Below, piece after piece: positions 9,813-15,107 of a stretch of DNA of 44,208 bases (its first letter is position 1; each line of letters opens with the position of its first letter). The stretch is from an uncultured Actinomycetes bacterium. Its GTDB lineage: Bacteria > Actinomycetota > Thermoleophilia > Miltoncostaeales > Miltoncostaeaceae. The notes beneath the pieces were generated by a model. That model ran no database searches, was not told the origin of the DNA, and saw nothing but the letters and a program-made list of their open reading frames with translations. Both the position numbers and the translations under genes were made by a program. The stretch covers positions 1 through 44,208 of the forward strand of contig CAITWD010000026.1 of NCBI GenBank assembly GCA_903896045.1, in the 5' to 3' direction.

Positions 9813-10403
9813 ATGATTCGCTCTCTGCGCGGCACCCTGGCAACGCTTTCTTCCGACGGCATCGTGATCGATATCGGTGGGGTCGGGATGCTTGTGCACG
9901 TCTCGGCCGGCACACAACTTGGGTTGCCTCCTGCCGGAAGTACGGTGCAGCTCGAAACGCATCTTGTTGTGCGCGAAGACGCCCTTGATCTCTTTGGCTT
10001 TCTCGATACTGCAGAACGCGAGCTCTTTGTGGCGCTGACGGGCGTCAGCGGTGTCGGGCCGCGTACGGCGTTGGCTATTTGTGGCCTTGGGGGCGCGAGT
10101 GAGGTTGCCGGATTTATCGCGAGCGGCGACGTCGCGTCGCTCCAACGGGCGCCCGGGATCGGCAAACGCACAGCCGAACGCATTGTTTTGGATCTTCGGG
10201 ACCGCGTGGGTGGTGTCACCACCCCAGGGGTGCCGGGGAATCCTTCCCTGATCGCTGTGTCAGCAGATCTGGAGGTCCGCACCGCGCTTCTGGGTTTGGG
10301 ATTTCGTGATGATGAGATCTCGCACGCCCTTCTTGGTGTAGACACTGACGCTCCGGTCGACGAACGGGTCCGCCACGCTTTGAGTCAGTTGCGGACCCGC
10401 TAA
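9813..10403 (+). CDS. ruvA: Holliday junction branch-migration protein RuvA
   Basis: RuvA tetramers bind four-way junctions and load RuvB. Domain I is an OB fold ([23 protein letters not shown] start), domain II has helix-hairpin-helix motifs ([15 protein letters not shown] and [18 protein letters not shown]), and domain III (about residues 140-196) is the RuvB-contacting helical tail. The stop TAA overlaps the ruvB ATG (TAATG), so the two are translationally coupled. Confidence 0.97.
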
Positions 10404-11419
10404 TGGATGATGCGCGCCTGACGGATCCCGACGAAGGAATACGGGAGCGGGATTTTGATCGGGCGCTGCGCCCGTCCTCTCTTGCTGCATTCATCGGGCA
10501 ACATGATGCGCGAAAAAAACTTGAAATATTCCTTCGCGCAGCACGCGAACGAGAAGAAGCGCTTGATCACGTCCTTCTCGCCGGACCACCGGGACTTGGA
10601 AAAACTTCGCTGGCTCGAATCATCGCGACCGAACTCGGTGTGGGGTTCCACTCGACCAGTGGTCCGGTGATTGAGCGAAAAGGCGATCTGGCCGCAATTT
10701 TGACGGCGCTGCAACCCCATGACGTCCTGTTCGTCGATGAGATTCACCGGCTCGGAATCGCTGTTGAGGAGGTGCTTTATCCTGCGATGGAGGATTTCTC
10801 GCTCGATTTGGTCACCGGGCAAGGGCCCTCCGCAAATATTCTGAAAATCCCGCTGCCGCCATTCACGTTGATCGGCGCAACGACCAGAACCGGGTTGCTC
10901 TCGGCGCCACTGCTTGATCGCTTCGGTGTCGTAGAACGCCTCAACTATTACTCCTCTGAAGACCTCGCCCAAATCGTGCAGCGCTCAGCGAACCTTCTTG
11001 GCGTTTCGATTTCCTCAGATGGCGCGTCTGCCATCGGCGCTCGTTCGCGTGGGACCCCTCGGATCGCGAACCGACTCGTTCGGCGGATTCGCGACGTCGC
11101 ACAAGTCGATGGGATCACCAATATTGACGCCACGCATGCCGCACATGCGCTTGACGTGTTGTCGGTTGACTCACTTGGTCTCGAAGATCTCGACCGACGA
11201 ATCCTCGGCATTCTGACGAAGGGGTTCGAGGGGCGTCCTGTGGGGCTTGGCACGCTTGCCGATAGCGTCGGCGAATCTCCCGACACGATTGAAGATGTCT
11301 ACGAGCCCTATCTGCTCCAGGAGGGACTTATCGCGCGGACGCCTCGGGGGCGTATCGCAATGCCGAAGGCCTATCGTCACCTGGGGCTCGAGCCGCCAAG
11401 CGACGGGACGCTGTGGTAA
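10403..11419 (+). CDS. ruvB: Holliday junction branch-migration ATPase RuvB
   Basis: This AAA+ motor drives branch migration with RuvA. Walker A is GPPGLGKT (61-68), Walker B is VLFVDEIH (108-115), sensor 1 is IGATTRTG and the arginine-finger region is SAPLLDRFG. The C-terminal winged helix (about 255-338) includes [15 protein letters not shown] and ends in the typical [17 protein letters not shown]. Length 338 aa is standard. No T-tract terminator follows on this strand; the next gene cluster is convergent. Confidence 0.98.
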
Positions 11420-11562: not shown

Positions 11563-12489
11563 TTAACGCCGACGCTTGTTTTTTGGGAGACGGCCAGTTG
11601 GGACCGGCGCGGGAGCCGTATCGAGGGCGAGCGCGATGCGCTGGCCAATCAATCCAACTGCAACTGACGCAGGAATATAGGCAAGTGCGGCTGCATCCTG
11701 GATTGCGGCCTGTTCGGCGGAAGCGTATGCGGCAGCTGGTTCCTTCGCGTCCTTGAGTTCTATCATCGCAAGGCGCAGGGCTTGCACCTGCGCAGTGTCC
11801 TCGCACTTGGACATACCCAAGTGCTGGAGCTGATGCGCGATTTCTTTTTGTTGCGGGTCAATTGTCGCAGGCCCCGAGGTGAATGCCTCGTGAAGCAGCA
11901 TCAGGCCCGAGCGAGATGTGAACGTTCCCCCAGCTTGGCGCGCAATACGCCAGGCAATTTGGGCTTCCCAGGTATTCAGCGCCTCAGCATGCTGGCTGTA
12001 GACGACCTCGAGTAGCGCCTTATTGTGGGAATGCTCTTCCTCGTCATGATCGTGGTCATGATCGTGGTCATGATCGTGCTCGTGGTCATGTGCGACGGCG
12101 TCACGACAGACCGCACAGCCGCCTGGCAACCCGAGCGCCTCATGGGCGATGTCGTACAGCGGAGCGATTTCCTCGTCGTCGGCGTCATCATCGTCGCCGT
12201 CATCGGGTTCTGGTGATTCCGCCTCTGCGCGCAGCAAATCAAAGGCCTTTTCGATATCAAGGCGCTGATCGTCGCCACACGCATCATCGAGAAGGTCGGC
12301 TAACACCGGCGCAACATCAAGAGGCGTGCCGGCGGAGAGGCGCGCAATATCTCCATCGAGACTGCGCAGATTACGGAGAAGCGTCGGGGGGGCAGCGTCA
12401 AGACGGTTCAATAGATCGCCGCCAGGGGTGACTCCGGTCTGTTGCGCCAAGGAGCGCAGCAACCATTCCGCCAAAGACCATTCTTCCAA
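11563..12489 (-). CDS. Unrecognised His/Asp-rich, putatively metal-binding protein (308 aa)
   Basis: I do not recognise this family. The N-terminal third is helical (EEWSLAEWLLRSLAQQ). Residues 93-107 form an acidic stretch, C125-C128 is a CAVC motif, and residues 134-155 are a His/Asp tract (HDHEHDHDHDHD type) that would be expected to bind Zn, Ni or Co. The C-terminal 140 residues are Ala-rich and helical, end in basic KNKRRR, and show no signal peptide or TM segment, so the protein is probably cytoplasmic. The His tract is encoded by a 12-bp tandem repeat. The gene is reverse to ruvCAB and has its own terminator. His tracts also occur in metallochaperones and CDF transporters, but no other feature of those families is present. 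Confidence 0.72.
   Translation of the reverse strand: MEEWSLAEWLLRSLAQQTGVTPGGDLLNRLDAAPPTLLRNLRSLDGDIARLSAGTPLDVAPVLADLLDDACGDDQRLDIEKAFDLLRAEAESPEPDDGDDDDADDEEIAPLYDIAHEALGLPGGCAVCRDAVAHDHEHDHDHDHDHDHDEEEHSHNKALLEVVYSQHAEALNTWEAQIAWRIARQAGGTFTSRSGLMLLHEAFTSGPATIDPQQKEIAHQLQHLGMSKCEDTAQVQALRLAMIELKDAKEPAAAYASAEQAAIQDAAALAYIPASVAVGLIGQRIALALDTAPAPVPTGRLPKNKRRR
12043..12090 (+). repeat. 12-bp tandem repeat encoding the His-Asp tract
   Basis: GTCATGATCGTG occurs three times exactly at 12043-12054, 12055-12066 and 12067-12078, followed by a degenerate half-copy pair (CTCGTG GTCATG) to 12090. On the reverse strand each unit encodes His-Asp-His-Asp. Being a multiple of three, copy-number slippage would change tract length without a frameshift. 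Confidence 0.9.
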
Positions 12490-12617: not shown

Positions 12618-13817
12618 CTACTGCTGCACATCCGCGTCCAGAGAGAGGTCAACGCCTTTGCTTTCGAGCACTTCGCGGTAGATCGCCTCGACACGCTCGG
12701 CGACGATCGGCCAGGAGTAACGCGTTTCCGCGATCATCCTCCCTTGCGCGCCCCATTCGCGCTGCAATCGACGGTCTCCCAACACTTTTGTGAGGCCATC
12801 GGCAAGCGCGGTTGGATCGTCACCGGTGACAAATTCGCCAGGCGCGCCATCCCTGATCACCTGTCGAAATCCGATGTTGTCCGCACAGACGATCGGGATC
12901 CCGCTCGCAAAGCCTTCCAGCAGAACCACACCAAACGATGCGAGCGTGCAGGGCGCAGCAAGCACCGTCGCATTTCGGTAGATCTCCGGACGCTCCTCGT
13001 TGAGGAGTCCCAGCCATTCGATCCGATCCCACACGCCAGCGCGGCGTGCTTGGCGCTCGTACATCGGGCGGGCCGGCCCATCACCAATCACCTGGACACG
13101 AAAGTCAATTCCGCGATCAACGAGGATTCGCGCTGCATCGATCAACGTTCCGAGACCGTTCCGGGGATCGAACCGGCCAACAAACAGAATCCGGGGGGTC
13201 TCCTGTGTTTCGGGAACGTCATGGCGCGGCGAAAAGAAATCAATGTCGATGCCATTGGGAACAATGTCGAAGTCCTCATTCGGAAAATATTGCTCCAAGG
13301 AGTCAATGCAGGCCCGCGACACGGCGATTTTGCGATCCATGTTGCCCAATGCGGTTGCCACATATTGATGGAGCACCCTGTAGGCAATGTGTCCGCCGTC
13401 AAAGTATGTGTGAAAGGTCCCCACCGTGCACAACGCCTTGGATGACCGCAGCGACCACAACGGCAGGCATGGCGCCGCAAGACCCTGTGCATGCACGACA
13501 TCCATAGGAGCCTGCACCCGCGCCAGACGACGTTTCAGTGCGGGTCCGGCAGAGACTCGTGCAATTGACCCATTCGAGACGACGGGGAGCGAGCGACCGA
13601 TGCGGACGGTGCGATACCCGGCGTCCTGCGCATGGGCCCGATCGATCACGTCCTCATCATGGCGATGTTTGCGATGTTGCCGGGACGTCACCACGGTGAC
13701 GTCGTGGCCACGATGGGCGAGTTCACGTGACAGGAAATGCACGTGCTCAGAAATACCACCAAGTACTGGATAGGCGTATTCGGTCACCATCGCGATGCGC
13801 AACGGGCGGATCATCAT
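12618..13817 (-). CDS. GT4-family glycosyltransferase, PimA-like
   Basis: This retaining GT-B glycosyltransferase probably uses a nucleotide-sugar donor and a lipid or envelope acceptor at the inner membrane face. The N-terminal acceptor domain has MVTEYAYPVLGGISEHVHFL and TVGTFHTYFDGG; the middle has IVPNGIDIDFFSP and ILFVGRFDPRNG; the donor site has EGFASGIPIVCADNIGFRQVI with the E-x7-E-like acceptor loop of GT4. The overall pattern resembles phosphatidylinositol mannosyltransferases (PimA). The start is one of two consecutive ATGs (13817 or 13814) after AAGGA, and overlaps the stop of the upstream PAP2 gene, so the two are coupled. The open frame reaches 13928 but that part has no family features. 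Acceptor identity is inference. Confidence 0.85.
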   Translation of the reverse strand: MMIRPLRIAMVTEYAYPVLGGISEHVHFLSRELAHRGHDVTVVTSRQHRKHRHDEDVIDRAHAQDAGYRTVRIGRSLPVVSNGSIARVSAGPALKRRLARVQAPMDVVHAQGLAAPCLPLWSLRSSKALCTVGTFHTYFDGGHIAYRVLHQYVATALGNMDRKIAVSRACIDSLEQYFPNEDFDIVPNGIDIDFFSPRHDVPETQETPRILFVGRFDPRNGLGTLIDAARILVDRGIDFRVQVIGDGPARPMYERQARRAGVWDRIEWLGLLNEERPEIYRNATVLAAPCTLASFGVVLLEGFASGIPIVCADNIGFRQVIRDGAPGEFVTGDDPTALADGLTKVLGDRRLQREWGAQGRMIAETRYSWPIVAERVEAIYREVLESKGVDLSLDADVQQ

Positions 13818-14674
13818 TGTCCTTGACTGGAGGTAGGAGCATCGCCGAGGGTATCGACCGGTTCGGACCCCGAGATTGTTTGCCAGGGGCGCAACACGTC
13901 CCGGCCTGTCAACGCGTGGACGATCCACAGCGCGATGAGCACAGTCGCAATCCCGCCAACACCATCAAGCAGATAATGGTTGGCGGTCGCCATGGTGACC
14001 CATGCCATCCATATGGGAAGTAGCCACCACAAATATTTGCGAGATCCGGGTCGGTGCGTCAGGAGCACAAGCGCGCATGCAAACAAGAACGATTGCCCGA
14101 TGTGAAGCGATGGCATCGCGGCATAGTCGTTACGCAGAGACTGAAACCAATTCAGCGCCCCACCGAGGCGCAGCGCATGCTGGGTTGTGTCGACCACACC
14201 ATTGAGTGCAAACCGCGGCGGCGCCAGTGGGGCCACCCAAAACACGGTAACGGCGAGGATGTGGGTGGTCCAAAACCAATTGCGCAAAAATGCATAATGC
14301 GCGCGCCAGCGGAACCACACCACAACAAAGAATGCGACAAACAAGGGGGTATACGCCAGGGTGTAGTACCACGTCGTCGCGAACCGGCCCCCGGGGATGG
14401 AGTCGGTGAGCTGCTGCACGCCCGATTCAATGGCGATATGCATGAACTTCTCTGCAGAAACGATGTGGTGTGCGGAAGAAAAGGCCGATTGCACCCGCTG
14501 ACCATGAGGGGCCACCAAGAGCCGCAGGCCCTCATAGACAAGGTCCAGAACCACCATGAAGATGATCTCAAGGGGCAATGGCCATGCTGCGCGCGCGGCC
14601 CGTGCGCGCAGTGAAAGCGCAGGCGTATCCATTGCGTTGGAAACTAGCAGTGCCCGTACCGGGTCTGCGTCCAC
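13814..14674 (-). CDS. PAP2-superfamily membrane protein (Aur1/inositolphosphotransferase-like)
   Basis: This integral membrane phosphatase or phosphotransferase has about six hydrophobic helices. It contains AAMPSLHIGQS (PSxH, motif C2) and TANHYLLDGVGG (H-x3-D, motif C3), but no KxxxxxxRP motif C1, the pattern of the PAP2_3/Aur1-like branch that transfers lipid phosphate headgroups. The helix just before the PSLH motif is preceded by PLAPPRF, also usual in this branch. It is coupled to the downstream glycosyltransferase by a 4-nt overlap, which suggests a joint role in glycolipid or phospho-lipid headgroup synthesis. The start (GTG 14674 or ATG 14632) is not settled. It is divergent from yajC. 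Confidence 0.8.
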   Translation of the reverse strand: MDADPVRALLVSNAMDTPALSLRARAARAAWPLPLEIIFMVVLDLVYEGLRLLVAPHGQRVQSAFSSAHHIVSAEKFMHIAIESGVQQLTDSIPGGRFATTWYYTLAYTPLFVAFFVVVWFRWRAHYAFLRNWFWTTHILAVTVFWVAPLAPPRFALNGVVDTTQHALRLGGALNWFQSLRNDYAAMPSLHIGQSFLFACALVLLTHRPGSRKYLWWLLPIWMAWVTMATANHYLLDGVGGIATVLIALWIVHALTGRDVLRPWQTISGSEPVDTLGDAPTSSQGQ

Positions 14675-14792
14675 GACGATCCGCGCCGAACAGTCACAAT
14701 GCCGATGTCATCCCATACCCAAGACCAGGGAGATATCGAGACCCTCTGCTATCTTCCGCACGTCAACATCCCCTTAAACGAAGGCCGTGCAC

Positions 14793-15107
14793 GTGGGCGG
14801 ATCGACCCTCATTATTGTCTATATCGCAATCTTCGTCGGGATTATTTATCTCTTCGCGGTGATGCCACAACGACGTTTGCGTCGTGCACAAGCACAACTG
14901 ATGACCAAGCTGCATGTCGGAGTAGAGATCATCACCACTGGTGGTCTCTATGGGACAGTGACGGAGATTGAGGATGGAGACACCCTCTTGATCGAAGTCG
15001 CCGAAGACACCGAAGTGCGTATCGCCAAAGCCGCGATCTCACGGATTCTCGACGACGCGTCGGTTGCGTTGTCGCCGCCATCCGAGTCATCAGAATCGCC
15101 TGAATAA
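14793..15107 (+). CDS. yajC: Preprotein translocase accessory subunit YajC
   Basis: YajC is a small single-pass membrane protein found with SecDF and SecYEG. It has an N-terminal TM (STLIIVYIAIFVGIIYLFAV), then MPQRRLRRAQAQ and the conserved VGVEIITTGGLYGTVTEI core. GTG at 14793 lies 9 nt after GAAGG and is preferred; GTG at 14787 in the same frame is only 3 nt after it. The C-terminal tail is Ser/Pro-rich. secDF starts 3 nt downstream, so they form one operon. Confidence 0.93.
   Translation: MGGSTLIIVYIAIFVGIIYLFAVMPQRRLRRAQAQLMTKLHVGVEIITTGGLYGTVTEIEDGDTLLIEVAEDTEVRIAKAAISRILDDASVALSPPSESSESPE

What the first reader, a model, noticed from the sequence alone, without database searches (positions are those of the whole stretch)
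12618..14674. Coupled PAP2-GT4 pair inserted between ruvB and yajC: possible glycolipid module
A PAP2_3/Aur1-like membrane protein and a PimA-like glycosyltransferase overlap by 4 nt, so they are co-translated. In Mycobacterium, pimA with pgsA lies close to pdxST-ruvCAB, so this could be a rearranged remnant of a phosphoinositol-lipid locus, with the PAP2 protein in place of a CDP-alcohol phosphatidyltransferase. The joint function is inference.
Basis: partly seen in the sequence, partly recalled or inferred. Interest (0 to 1): 0.55.

Follow-up and report, generated by a model that had tools for sequence, protein, structure and literature searches.

The report
PAP2 enzyme coupled to PimA-like glycosyltransferase
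Two overlapping genes in an uncultured actinobacterium encode a membrane phosphotransferase-type enzyme and a sugar transferase related to, but distinct from, the enzyme that starts mycobacterial inositol glycolipids; relatives carry a similar pair fused into one protein, which points to a glycolipid-making unit whose product is still unknown.

Summary
The pair is real: PAP2_3 (13814-14632, -) and a GT4 (12618-13817, -) overlap by 4 nt, kept in relatives. Judged by relatives, the host is a thermoleophilian, order Miltoncostaeales. The GT's closest solved relative is PimA, but it lies outside the PimA clade, in a group seen only in Thermoleophilia, where PimA's diphosphate-binding Lys202 is Asn and the first Glu of the EX7E motif is Ala (24 of 24 distinct proteins); other site residues are kept. 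A pgsA-pimA remnant is not supported: PIP-synthase-like and inositol-phosphate-synthase genes lie on another contig, and grouping the GT with the class's PimA proteins is rejected (AU p 0.0015). The GT is the resident gene beside yajC (25 of 26 named loci); PAP2* accompanies it in 8 of 26, so the partnership is dispensable. Unexpectedly, a different PAP2_3 is fused to a canonical PimA-like GT in three relatives, and PAP2_3 sits beside PIP synthase in 10 of 12 PAP2_3-bearing class genomes outside the family. Best reading: a membrane glycolipid module, probably on inositol phospholipids, whose GT has a rewired donor site; the chemistry is inferred. New variant of a known kind.

The parts
12618..13817 (-). 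GT*: GT4/GT-B glycosyltransferase, 399 aa, related to PimA but outside its clade
   Evidence: Pfam GT4 domains; PimA top solved structure; model pLDDT 84.3, Foldseek matches MshA, PimA and BshA; own clade in trees
13814..14632 (-). PAP2*: PAP2_3 (Aur1-type) membrane protein, 272 aa
   Evidence: PF14378 116.7 bits; H177, H219 and D223 invariant in 13 of 13 aligned orthologs
13814..13817 (-). ATGA overlap, stop of PAP2* and start of GT*
   Evidence: recurs
13158..13160 (-). GT* N220, at the position of PimA K202 (pyrophosphate-binding Lys)
   Evidence: alignments; role of K202 from PMC3898925 (passage)
12939..12941 (-). GT* A293, at the position of PimA E274 (first Glu of the EX7E motif)
   Evidence: role of the motif from PMC3898925
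14641..14649 (-). TGCTAGTTT, extended -10-like element just upstream of PAP2*; TGCTAGGTT at the like place in two congeners
   Evidence: by eye, inference
11563..12489 (-). His-rich ORF of unknown family downstream of GT* on the same strand; third gene of the run in 5 genomes, the window's included
   Evidence: no Pfam or NCBIfam hit at E 0.001
10403..11419 (+). ruvB, flank
   Evidence: synteny reference
14787..15107 (+). yajC, flank; GT*, alone or with PAP2*, borders it in 25 of 26 named loci

Best explanation
A membrane glycolipid module. GT* is a peripheral GT4 enzyme related to the PI-mannosyltransferase PimA but with a changed donor site (Lys to Asn at the diphosphate-binding position, first Glu of EX7E to Ala), so it most likely adds a sugar from a donor other than GDP-mannose to a membrane acceptor, probably an inositol phospholipid. 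PAP2* is an Aur1-type His-His-Asp phosphotransferase or phosphatase that makes or further processes that lipid. Shown: the genes, their conserved overlap, the residue changes, the phylogeny, a parallel PAP2_3-PimA-like fusion in relatives, and a PIP-synthase-like gene cluster in the same genome. Inferred: the acceptor, the donor, the reaction of PAP2*, and that both act on one lipid. It is not a displaced pgsA-pimA locus.
For: PimA is the closest solved relative over the full length. Equivalents of active-site H118, R196 and E282 are kept while K202 is N and E274 is A in 24 of 24 distinct proteins of the clade, against K and E in 36 of 36 PimA-type rows. GT* is constrained: dN 0.165 against 0.403 for PAP2* in the same genome pair (dS 2.5 and 2.0, near saturation), and dN 0.036 with dS 0.33 against 0.046 with 0.21 in a closer pair; identity to congener L048 is 77%, RuvB 76%, SecDF 72%. 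4-nt overlap in 10 of 10 adjacent pairs. Rosetta-stone evidence: another PAP2_3 and a canonical PimA-like GT are one ORF in G014, G021 and G017 and overlap by 4 nt in G015. PAP2_3 lies beside a PIP-synthase-like gene in 10 of 12 class genomes outside the family that have a PAP2_3 match. A PIP-synthase-like gene matches in 39 of 41 genomes, the window's included. PI is the main polar lipid of Conexibacter woesei (PMC3035278, passage), a genus listed under Thermoleophilia in an abstract seen.
Against: PAP2* is missing from 18 of 26 named GT* loci and no true ortholog was found elsewhere in those 18 genomes. PAP2* occurs without GT* in 3 genomes and away from it in G009. Across 25 family genomes co-occurrence is not significant (11 both, 3 PAP2* alone, 5 GT* alone, 6 neither; Fisher p 0.115). 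Five genomes with both genes lack inositol-phosphate synthase (G005, where the hit is 20 bits, G008, G009, G016, G017), though all five keep a PIP-synthase-like gene. In the window's own family PAP2_3 is not next to the PIP-synthase-like gene in the 4 loci read for that (L258-L261), nor in the window's genome, where PAP2b is several genes away. No PIP-synthase or inositol-phosphate-synthase match reaches its curated cut-off (0 of 41 each). Neither protein of the pair passes an NCBIfam cut-off among the matches shown. Two changed active-site residues could mean loss of catalysis.
Confidence: 0.45

Rival explanations
1. The pair works on a non-inositol lipid: GT* glycosylates diacylglycerol or a polyprenyl phosphate in envelope glycan synthesis, and PAP2* recycles or dephosphorylates the lipid carrier. 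Adjacency to yajC-secDF is incidental.
For: PAP2 proteins often act on polyprenyl diphosphates (recalled). Five of the 11 family genomes with both genes lack inositol-phosphate synthase. GT* is outside the PimA clade. PimA H94-E95-P96 is Q-G-L in GT*: Q and L in 18 of 18 rows, G in 16 of 18.
Against: PAP2* is PAP2_3 (116.7 bits) and scores under the general PAP2 cut-off (24.9 against 27.2). The parallel fusion is to a PimA-type GT, and other PAP2_3 of the class sit with a PIP-synthase-like gene.
Confidence: 0.3
2. GT* is a conserved pseudo-glycosyltransferase: it binds lipid or nucleotide but no longer transfers sugar, and serves as a scaffold or regulator at the membrane, with PAP2* as the only enzyme of the pair.
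For: Two donor-site residues that are otherwise near-constant in the GT4s aligned here are replaced in 24 of 24 proteins. In GnaT, Ala at the first Glu of EX7E gave near-total loss of activity (PMC12856342, passages).
Against: H136, R215, R219 and E301 stay fixed, unlike the drift of the GT in the PIP-synthase row of the same genome. WsaF, an active GT4 rhamnosyltransferase, also lacks the first Glu (PMC3898925 section 14).
Confidence: 0.15
3. One reading: a rearranged remnant of the actinobacterial pgsA-pimA-pdxST-ruvCAB locus, with PAP2* standing in for the CDP-alcohol phosphatidyltransferase.
For: PimA does sit on the pdxS side of yebC-ruvCAB in other actinobacteria (13 of 20 PimA loci read hold pdxS), and GT* is a PimA relative on the ruvB side of the same block.
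Against: The PIP-synthase-like and inositol-phosphate-synthase genes lie elsewhere in the genome. Holding GT* together with the class's PimA-type proteins is rejected (p 0.0015), and so is holding it with PimA apart from the cluster GTs (p 0.012). In the loci of the sister proteins that I read (L163, L165, L249-L251) no ruvB was found.
Confidence: 0.07

Closest known systems
PimA, GDP-mannose-dependent PI alpha-mannosyltransferase (GT4; PDB 2gej, 4n9w)
   Same: Full-length GT-B homology, 31% identity to M. smegmatis PimA for the window protein; active-site His, Arg and second Glu kept
   Different: Outside the PimA clade; K202 is N, E274 is A, H94-E95-P96 changed; not beside PIP synthase, and on the ruvB-yajC side instead of the pdxS side
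Aur1 / BT_1522 phosphoinositol (dihydro)ceramide synthase
   Same: PAP2_3 with a conserved His-His-Asp set (that this is the Aur1 triad is recalled); BT_1522 lies in a cluster with PIP synthase and inositol-phosphate synthase (PMC9246714, passages), as PAP2_3 does in Thermoleophilia outside the family
   Different: No NCBIfam match for PAP2*; only its paralog PAP2b matches NF052609, at 32.6 bits against a cut-off of 480
PAP2_3::PimA-like fusion of relatives (L157, L209, L215)
   Same: Same order, PAP2_3 then GT4
   Different: One ORF; GT with canonical K and E; its PAP2_3 is a separate clade
WsaF, GT4 rhamnosyltransferase
   Same: Also lacks the first Glu of EX7E yet is active (PMC3898925 section 14)
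   Different: Has Pro in a Pro-rich stretch there and keeps a positively charged pair, R249 and K302 (passage)

Membership tests
PimA | Best full-length homology among solved GTs | tested here: met
   185-186 bits against 106.5 for the next; by Foldseek MshA ranks above PimA by E-value
PimA | Position inside the PimA clade | tested here: not met
   A branch at 99/97 in 67 rows and 99/96 in 75 rows parts PimA plus cluster GTs from GT* plus other GT4s; AU p 0.0015 and 0.012 (groups named after the first tree was seen)
PimA | R196/K202 pyrophosphate-binding pair | tested here: not met
   R kept, K is N in 24 of 24 distinct proteins
PimA | EX7E motif E274/E282 | tested here: not met
   First Glu is Ala, second kept, 24 of 24
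PimA | Mannosylation of PI from GDP-mannose | not testable with these tools
   needs an enzyme assay
PAP2_3 superfamily (PF14378) | Score over the curated cut-off with conserved His-His-Asp | tested here: met
   116.7 bits against 27; residues invariant in 13 of 13
PAP2_3 superfamily (PF14378) | Fold match to a solved PAP2 structure | tested here: inconclusive
   model pLDDT 52, no match at E 0.001; no sequence hit in the PDB at E 1
Phosphoinositol dihydroceramide synthase (NF052609) | Match to the curated model | tested here: not met
   no hit for PAP2* at E 0.001
Actinobacterial pgsA-pimA-pdxST-ruvCAB locus | PIP synthase next to the GT, GT on the pdxS side | tested here: not met
   PIP-synthase-like gene on contig C4; GT* on the ruvB-yajC side

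The most novel reading that the evidence does not exclude
Thermoleophilia hard-wire Aur1-type PAP2_3 enzymes to PimA-family glycosyltransferases, twice independently (PAP2*-GT* and the PAP2_3::PimA-like fusion), as units that make a so far undescribed family of inositol glycolipids. PAP2_3 would be either the missing PIP phosphatase of actinobacterial PI synthesis or a transferase that hands the glycosyl-inositol-phosphate head group to a new acceptor, and GT* would be a GT4 enzyme with a rewired donor site that uses a donor other than GDP-mannose.
Probability: 0.3. Interest if true: 0.75.

Novelty: new variant of a known kind. Interest (0 to 1): 0.5.

Why it matters
The phosphatase that turns PIP into PI in mycobacteria was called yet-unidentified in 2019 (PMC6506517, passage). 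PAP2_3 proteins fused to PimA-like enzymes, and placed beside a PIP-synthase-like gene in much of a sister class, give concrete and testable candidates. The GT* clade is a natural case of a GT4 with two donor-site residues replaced and fixed, useful for learning which donors such a site accepts.

Tried and rejected
PF07994 found no inositol-phosphate synthase in the genome, but C. glutamicum did not ring in that control either. The protein on contig C4 matches PF01658 (133 bits) and TIGR03450 (537 bits, cut-off 638; C. glutamicum rings there), so the first negative was a false one. The PIP-synthase model NF045883 rings in 9 of 14 controls, E. coli among them, over the cut-off in 1, so a weak match means little; the matches counted here score 108-155 bits except a partial one of 50 bits in G018, while the genome's own PgsA scores 33. 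In the window's genome the archaetidylinositol-phosphate synthase model scores about the same as NF045883 (125 and 124 bits).

A first synteny table from longest ORFs mis-assigned frames in high-GC genomes and was replaced by tblastn. A motif table by regular expression mis-hit in several rows and was replaced by alignment columns. The regular expressions show the Asn form in 12 of 13 and ASFG in 13 of 13 GT*-type loci (L262-L274, several repeating earlier genes); the odd one, L262, is the gene read as L253.

Considered and rejected: PAP2 in place of a CDP-alcohol phosphatidyltransferase (three such matches exist in the genome); PAP2* moved rather than lost in the 18 loci without it (best score there 136.9 bits against about 400 for true orthologs; completeness of those genomes is not told). 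The PAP2* model was too poor to use.

Rows left out of trees; 7 of 74 (two partial cluster GTs, three partial others, two GT* thinned); 15 of the 83 rows at hand (six GT* and the repeat L253 thinned, M. smegmatis PimA itself, two own GT4s, and five degenerate cluster GTs, the window genome's own among them), 7 new rows added. Long branches were flagged in both. The AU groups were named after the first tree was seen. The trees are unrooted: 'sister of PimA' takes the other GT4s as outgroup.

One paper search was too broad to use. No paper in the listings (10 of 223 shown) and 94 looks to describe this pair or the fusion, judged from titles and abstract starts alone; that is a narrow search of an open-licence library.

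Full report
Observation. The two genes exist as described. PAP2_3 runs 13814-14632 on the minus strand and the GT4 12618-13817, sharing ATGA. Pfam scores are far over the cut-offs. I call them PAP2* and GT*. The window is a whole contig (C26) of a 1.67 Mb genome, 99.85% complete. That the host belongs to Thermoleophilia, order Miltoncostaeales, is inferred from the titles of the named records nearest to GT*, several titled Thermoleophilia and two Miltoncostaeales.

Synteny. Of 28 loci returned by the genome-contig scan, two were weak GT4 hits from other phyla (27-28% identity) and were dropped; 26 are GT* orthologs. GT*, alone or with PAP2*, borders yajC in 25 of 26 (not L079). ruvB is in the locus in 21 of 26, in L085 about 6 kb away; L101 and L102 end first, and L079-L081 show none. 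PAP2* stands between GT* and yajC in 8 of 26. In the 18 without it no true PAP2* was found elsewhere. Among 25 family genomes both genes occur in 11, PAP2* alone in 3 (in G018 in two contig-end pieces), GT* alone in 5 and neither in 6 (Fisher p 0.115). They are adjacent in 10 of the 11, the exception being G009. So GT* is the resident and PAP2* the variable partner, the reverse of an 'inserted pair'.

What the GT is. The best solved relative is PimA, over the full length. The AlphaFold model (pLDDT 84.3) is GT-B; Foldseek ranks MshA, PimA and BshA close together, so fold alone does not single out PimA. In a 67-row tree the 16 GT* rows are one clade (100/100), joined at 100/99 by two proteins of other families of the class, and a 99/97 branch parts PimA and the cluster GTs from GT* and the other GT4s. 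A 75-row tree agrees, with 21 rows of the new type one clade at 100/99. Holding GT* with the class's PimA-type proteins is rejected (p 0.0015), as is holding GT* and PimA together without the cluster GTs (p 0.012). Among 396 genomes of the phylum, 17 have a hit over 300 bits to the GT* profile, all in the window's class; the next best is 231 bits, and the 13 next loci read carry PimA's ESFG form. The one-contig family member G014 holds two better PimA matches (205 and 199 bits) besides GT* (119 bits).

Active site. The equivalents of PimA H118, R196 and E282 are kept in GT*, but K202 is N and E274, the first Glu of EX7E, is A in 24 of 24 distinct proteins of the clade, against K and E in 36 of 36 PimA-type rows (25 rows, of which L253 repeats L082); R201 is kept in the 18 rows. 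R196 and K202 are assigned to the pyrophosphate leaving group and the first Glu to O3 of the donor sugar; WsaF lacks that Glu and is active (PMC3898925, passages and section 14). In GnaT, Ala at the first Glu nearly abolished activity (PMC12856342, passages). So the donor site is changed, and either a different donor or loss of catalysis is possible. The other fixed residues and the low dN (0.165 against 0.403 for PAP2* in one pair with dS near saturation; 0.036 against 0.046 in a closer pair) favour a working protein.

What PAP2* is. PAP2_3 with H177, H219 and D223 invariant in 13 of 13 aligned orthologs; that these match the Aur1 triad is recalled. Its structure model is too poor to use. In the PAP2_3 tree PAP2* is one clade (98/96), apart from PAP2b (contig C4 in this genome) and from the fused PAP2_3.

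Parallel fusion. In G014, G021 and G017 another PAP2_3 and a PimA-like GT with canonical K and E form one ORF of 643-670 aa with both Pfam domains over their cut-offs; in G015 they are two genes overlapping by 4 nt. I met this while measuring the gap between what I had taken for two genes. These are 4 of the 25 family genomes, among the PAP2_3 loci that I read; not every PAP2_3 locus was read. It is independent evidence that PAP2_3 and PimA-family GTs can share a pathway. Against a wider rule, none of the 20 PimA loci of other Actinomycetota that I read (3-17 kb each) showed a PAP2_3 by a profile built from PAP2* and PAP2b.

Inositol lipids. The genome encodes an inositol-phosphate synthase of the mycothiol INO1 type (537 bits, cut-off 638), a PIP-synthase-like protein (124-140 bits, cut-off 170) and a GT/PHP-like protein in one run on contig C4. 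Outside the family, 12 of 16 class genomes have a PAP2_3 match; it lies upstream of the PIP-synthase-like gene on the same strand in the 9 that I read (hits 0.15-0.6 kb apart) and by coordinates in G040, while G027 and G037 have the two on different contigs: 10 of 12. In the window's family this adjacency is absent in the 4 loci read (L258-L261). PIP-synthase-like matches occur in 39 of 41 genomes, none over the cut-off, G018's partial. Inositol-phosphate synthase is convincing in 34 of 41: five have no match, and G005 and G038 match only at 20 and 19 bits. Five of the 11 genomes with both GT* and PAP2* lack it. PI is the main polar lipid of Conexibacter woesei (PMC3035278, passage). In Bacteroides the Aur1-like BT_1522 is the PI-dihydroceramide synthase and BT_1525, of the PgpA type, most probably the PIP phosphatase (PMC9246714, passages), so a PAP2_3 in such a cluster may be a transferase rather than a phosphatase.

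Verdict. I think it most likely a membrane glycolipid unit with a GT4 of altered donor site; the inositol acceptor is the leading but unproven choice.

Noticed in passing
L157:9753-11702 (-), L209:1047-2978 (+), L215:5656-7668 (+); split form at L225:5721-7573 (+): PAP2_3 and a canonical PimA-like GT4 fused in one ORF in three relatives, and overlapping by 4 nt in a fourth.
   Followed up: partly
L004:12427-14055 (-) (contig C4 of the window's genome): The GT in the run with inositol-phosphate synthase and the PIP-synthase-like gene has a C-terminal metallohydrolase-like part (26 bits, under the cut-off of 80; PHP by eye) and a degenerate GT active site; at the same position in other families the site ranges from near-intact to degenerate.
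   Followed up: partly
G005, G008, G009, G016, G017, G018: Inositol-phosphate synthase missing or negligible in six of 25 family genomes that keep a PIP-synthase-like match (partial in G018).
   Followed up: no
window:11563-12489 (-): Unknown protein with a His/Asp-rich run; found in 7 of 41 genomes, at the GT* locus in 5 of them and on other contigs in G005 and G016.
   Followed up: partly
L084, L097, L102: Public MAG records titled Bifidobacterium breve carry GT* beside yajC with 60-61% GT* identity; the titles look wrong.
   Followed up: no
e.g. L086:9984-9992, upstream of the GT* start: TGGTAC[CG]GT within the 60 nt before the GT* match in 17 of 18 loci without PAP2* (not L082), often 8 nt before the start codon, like an extended -10 of a leaderless transcript (counted by eye).
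   Followed up: no
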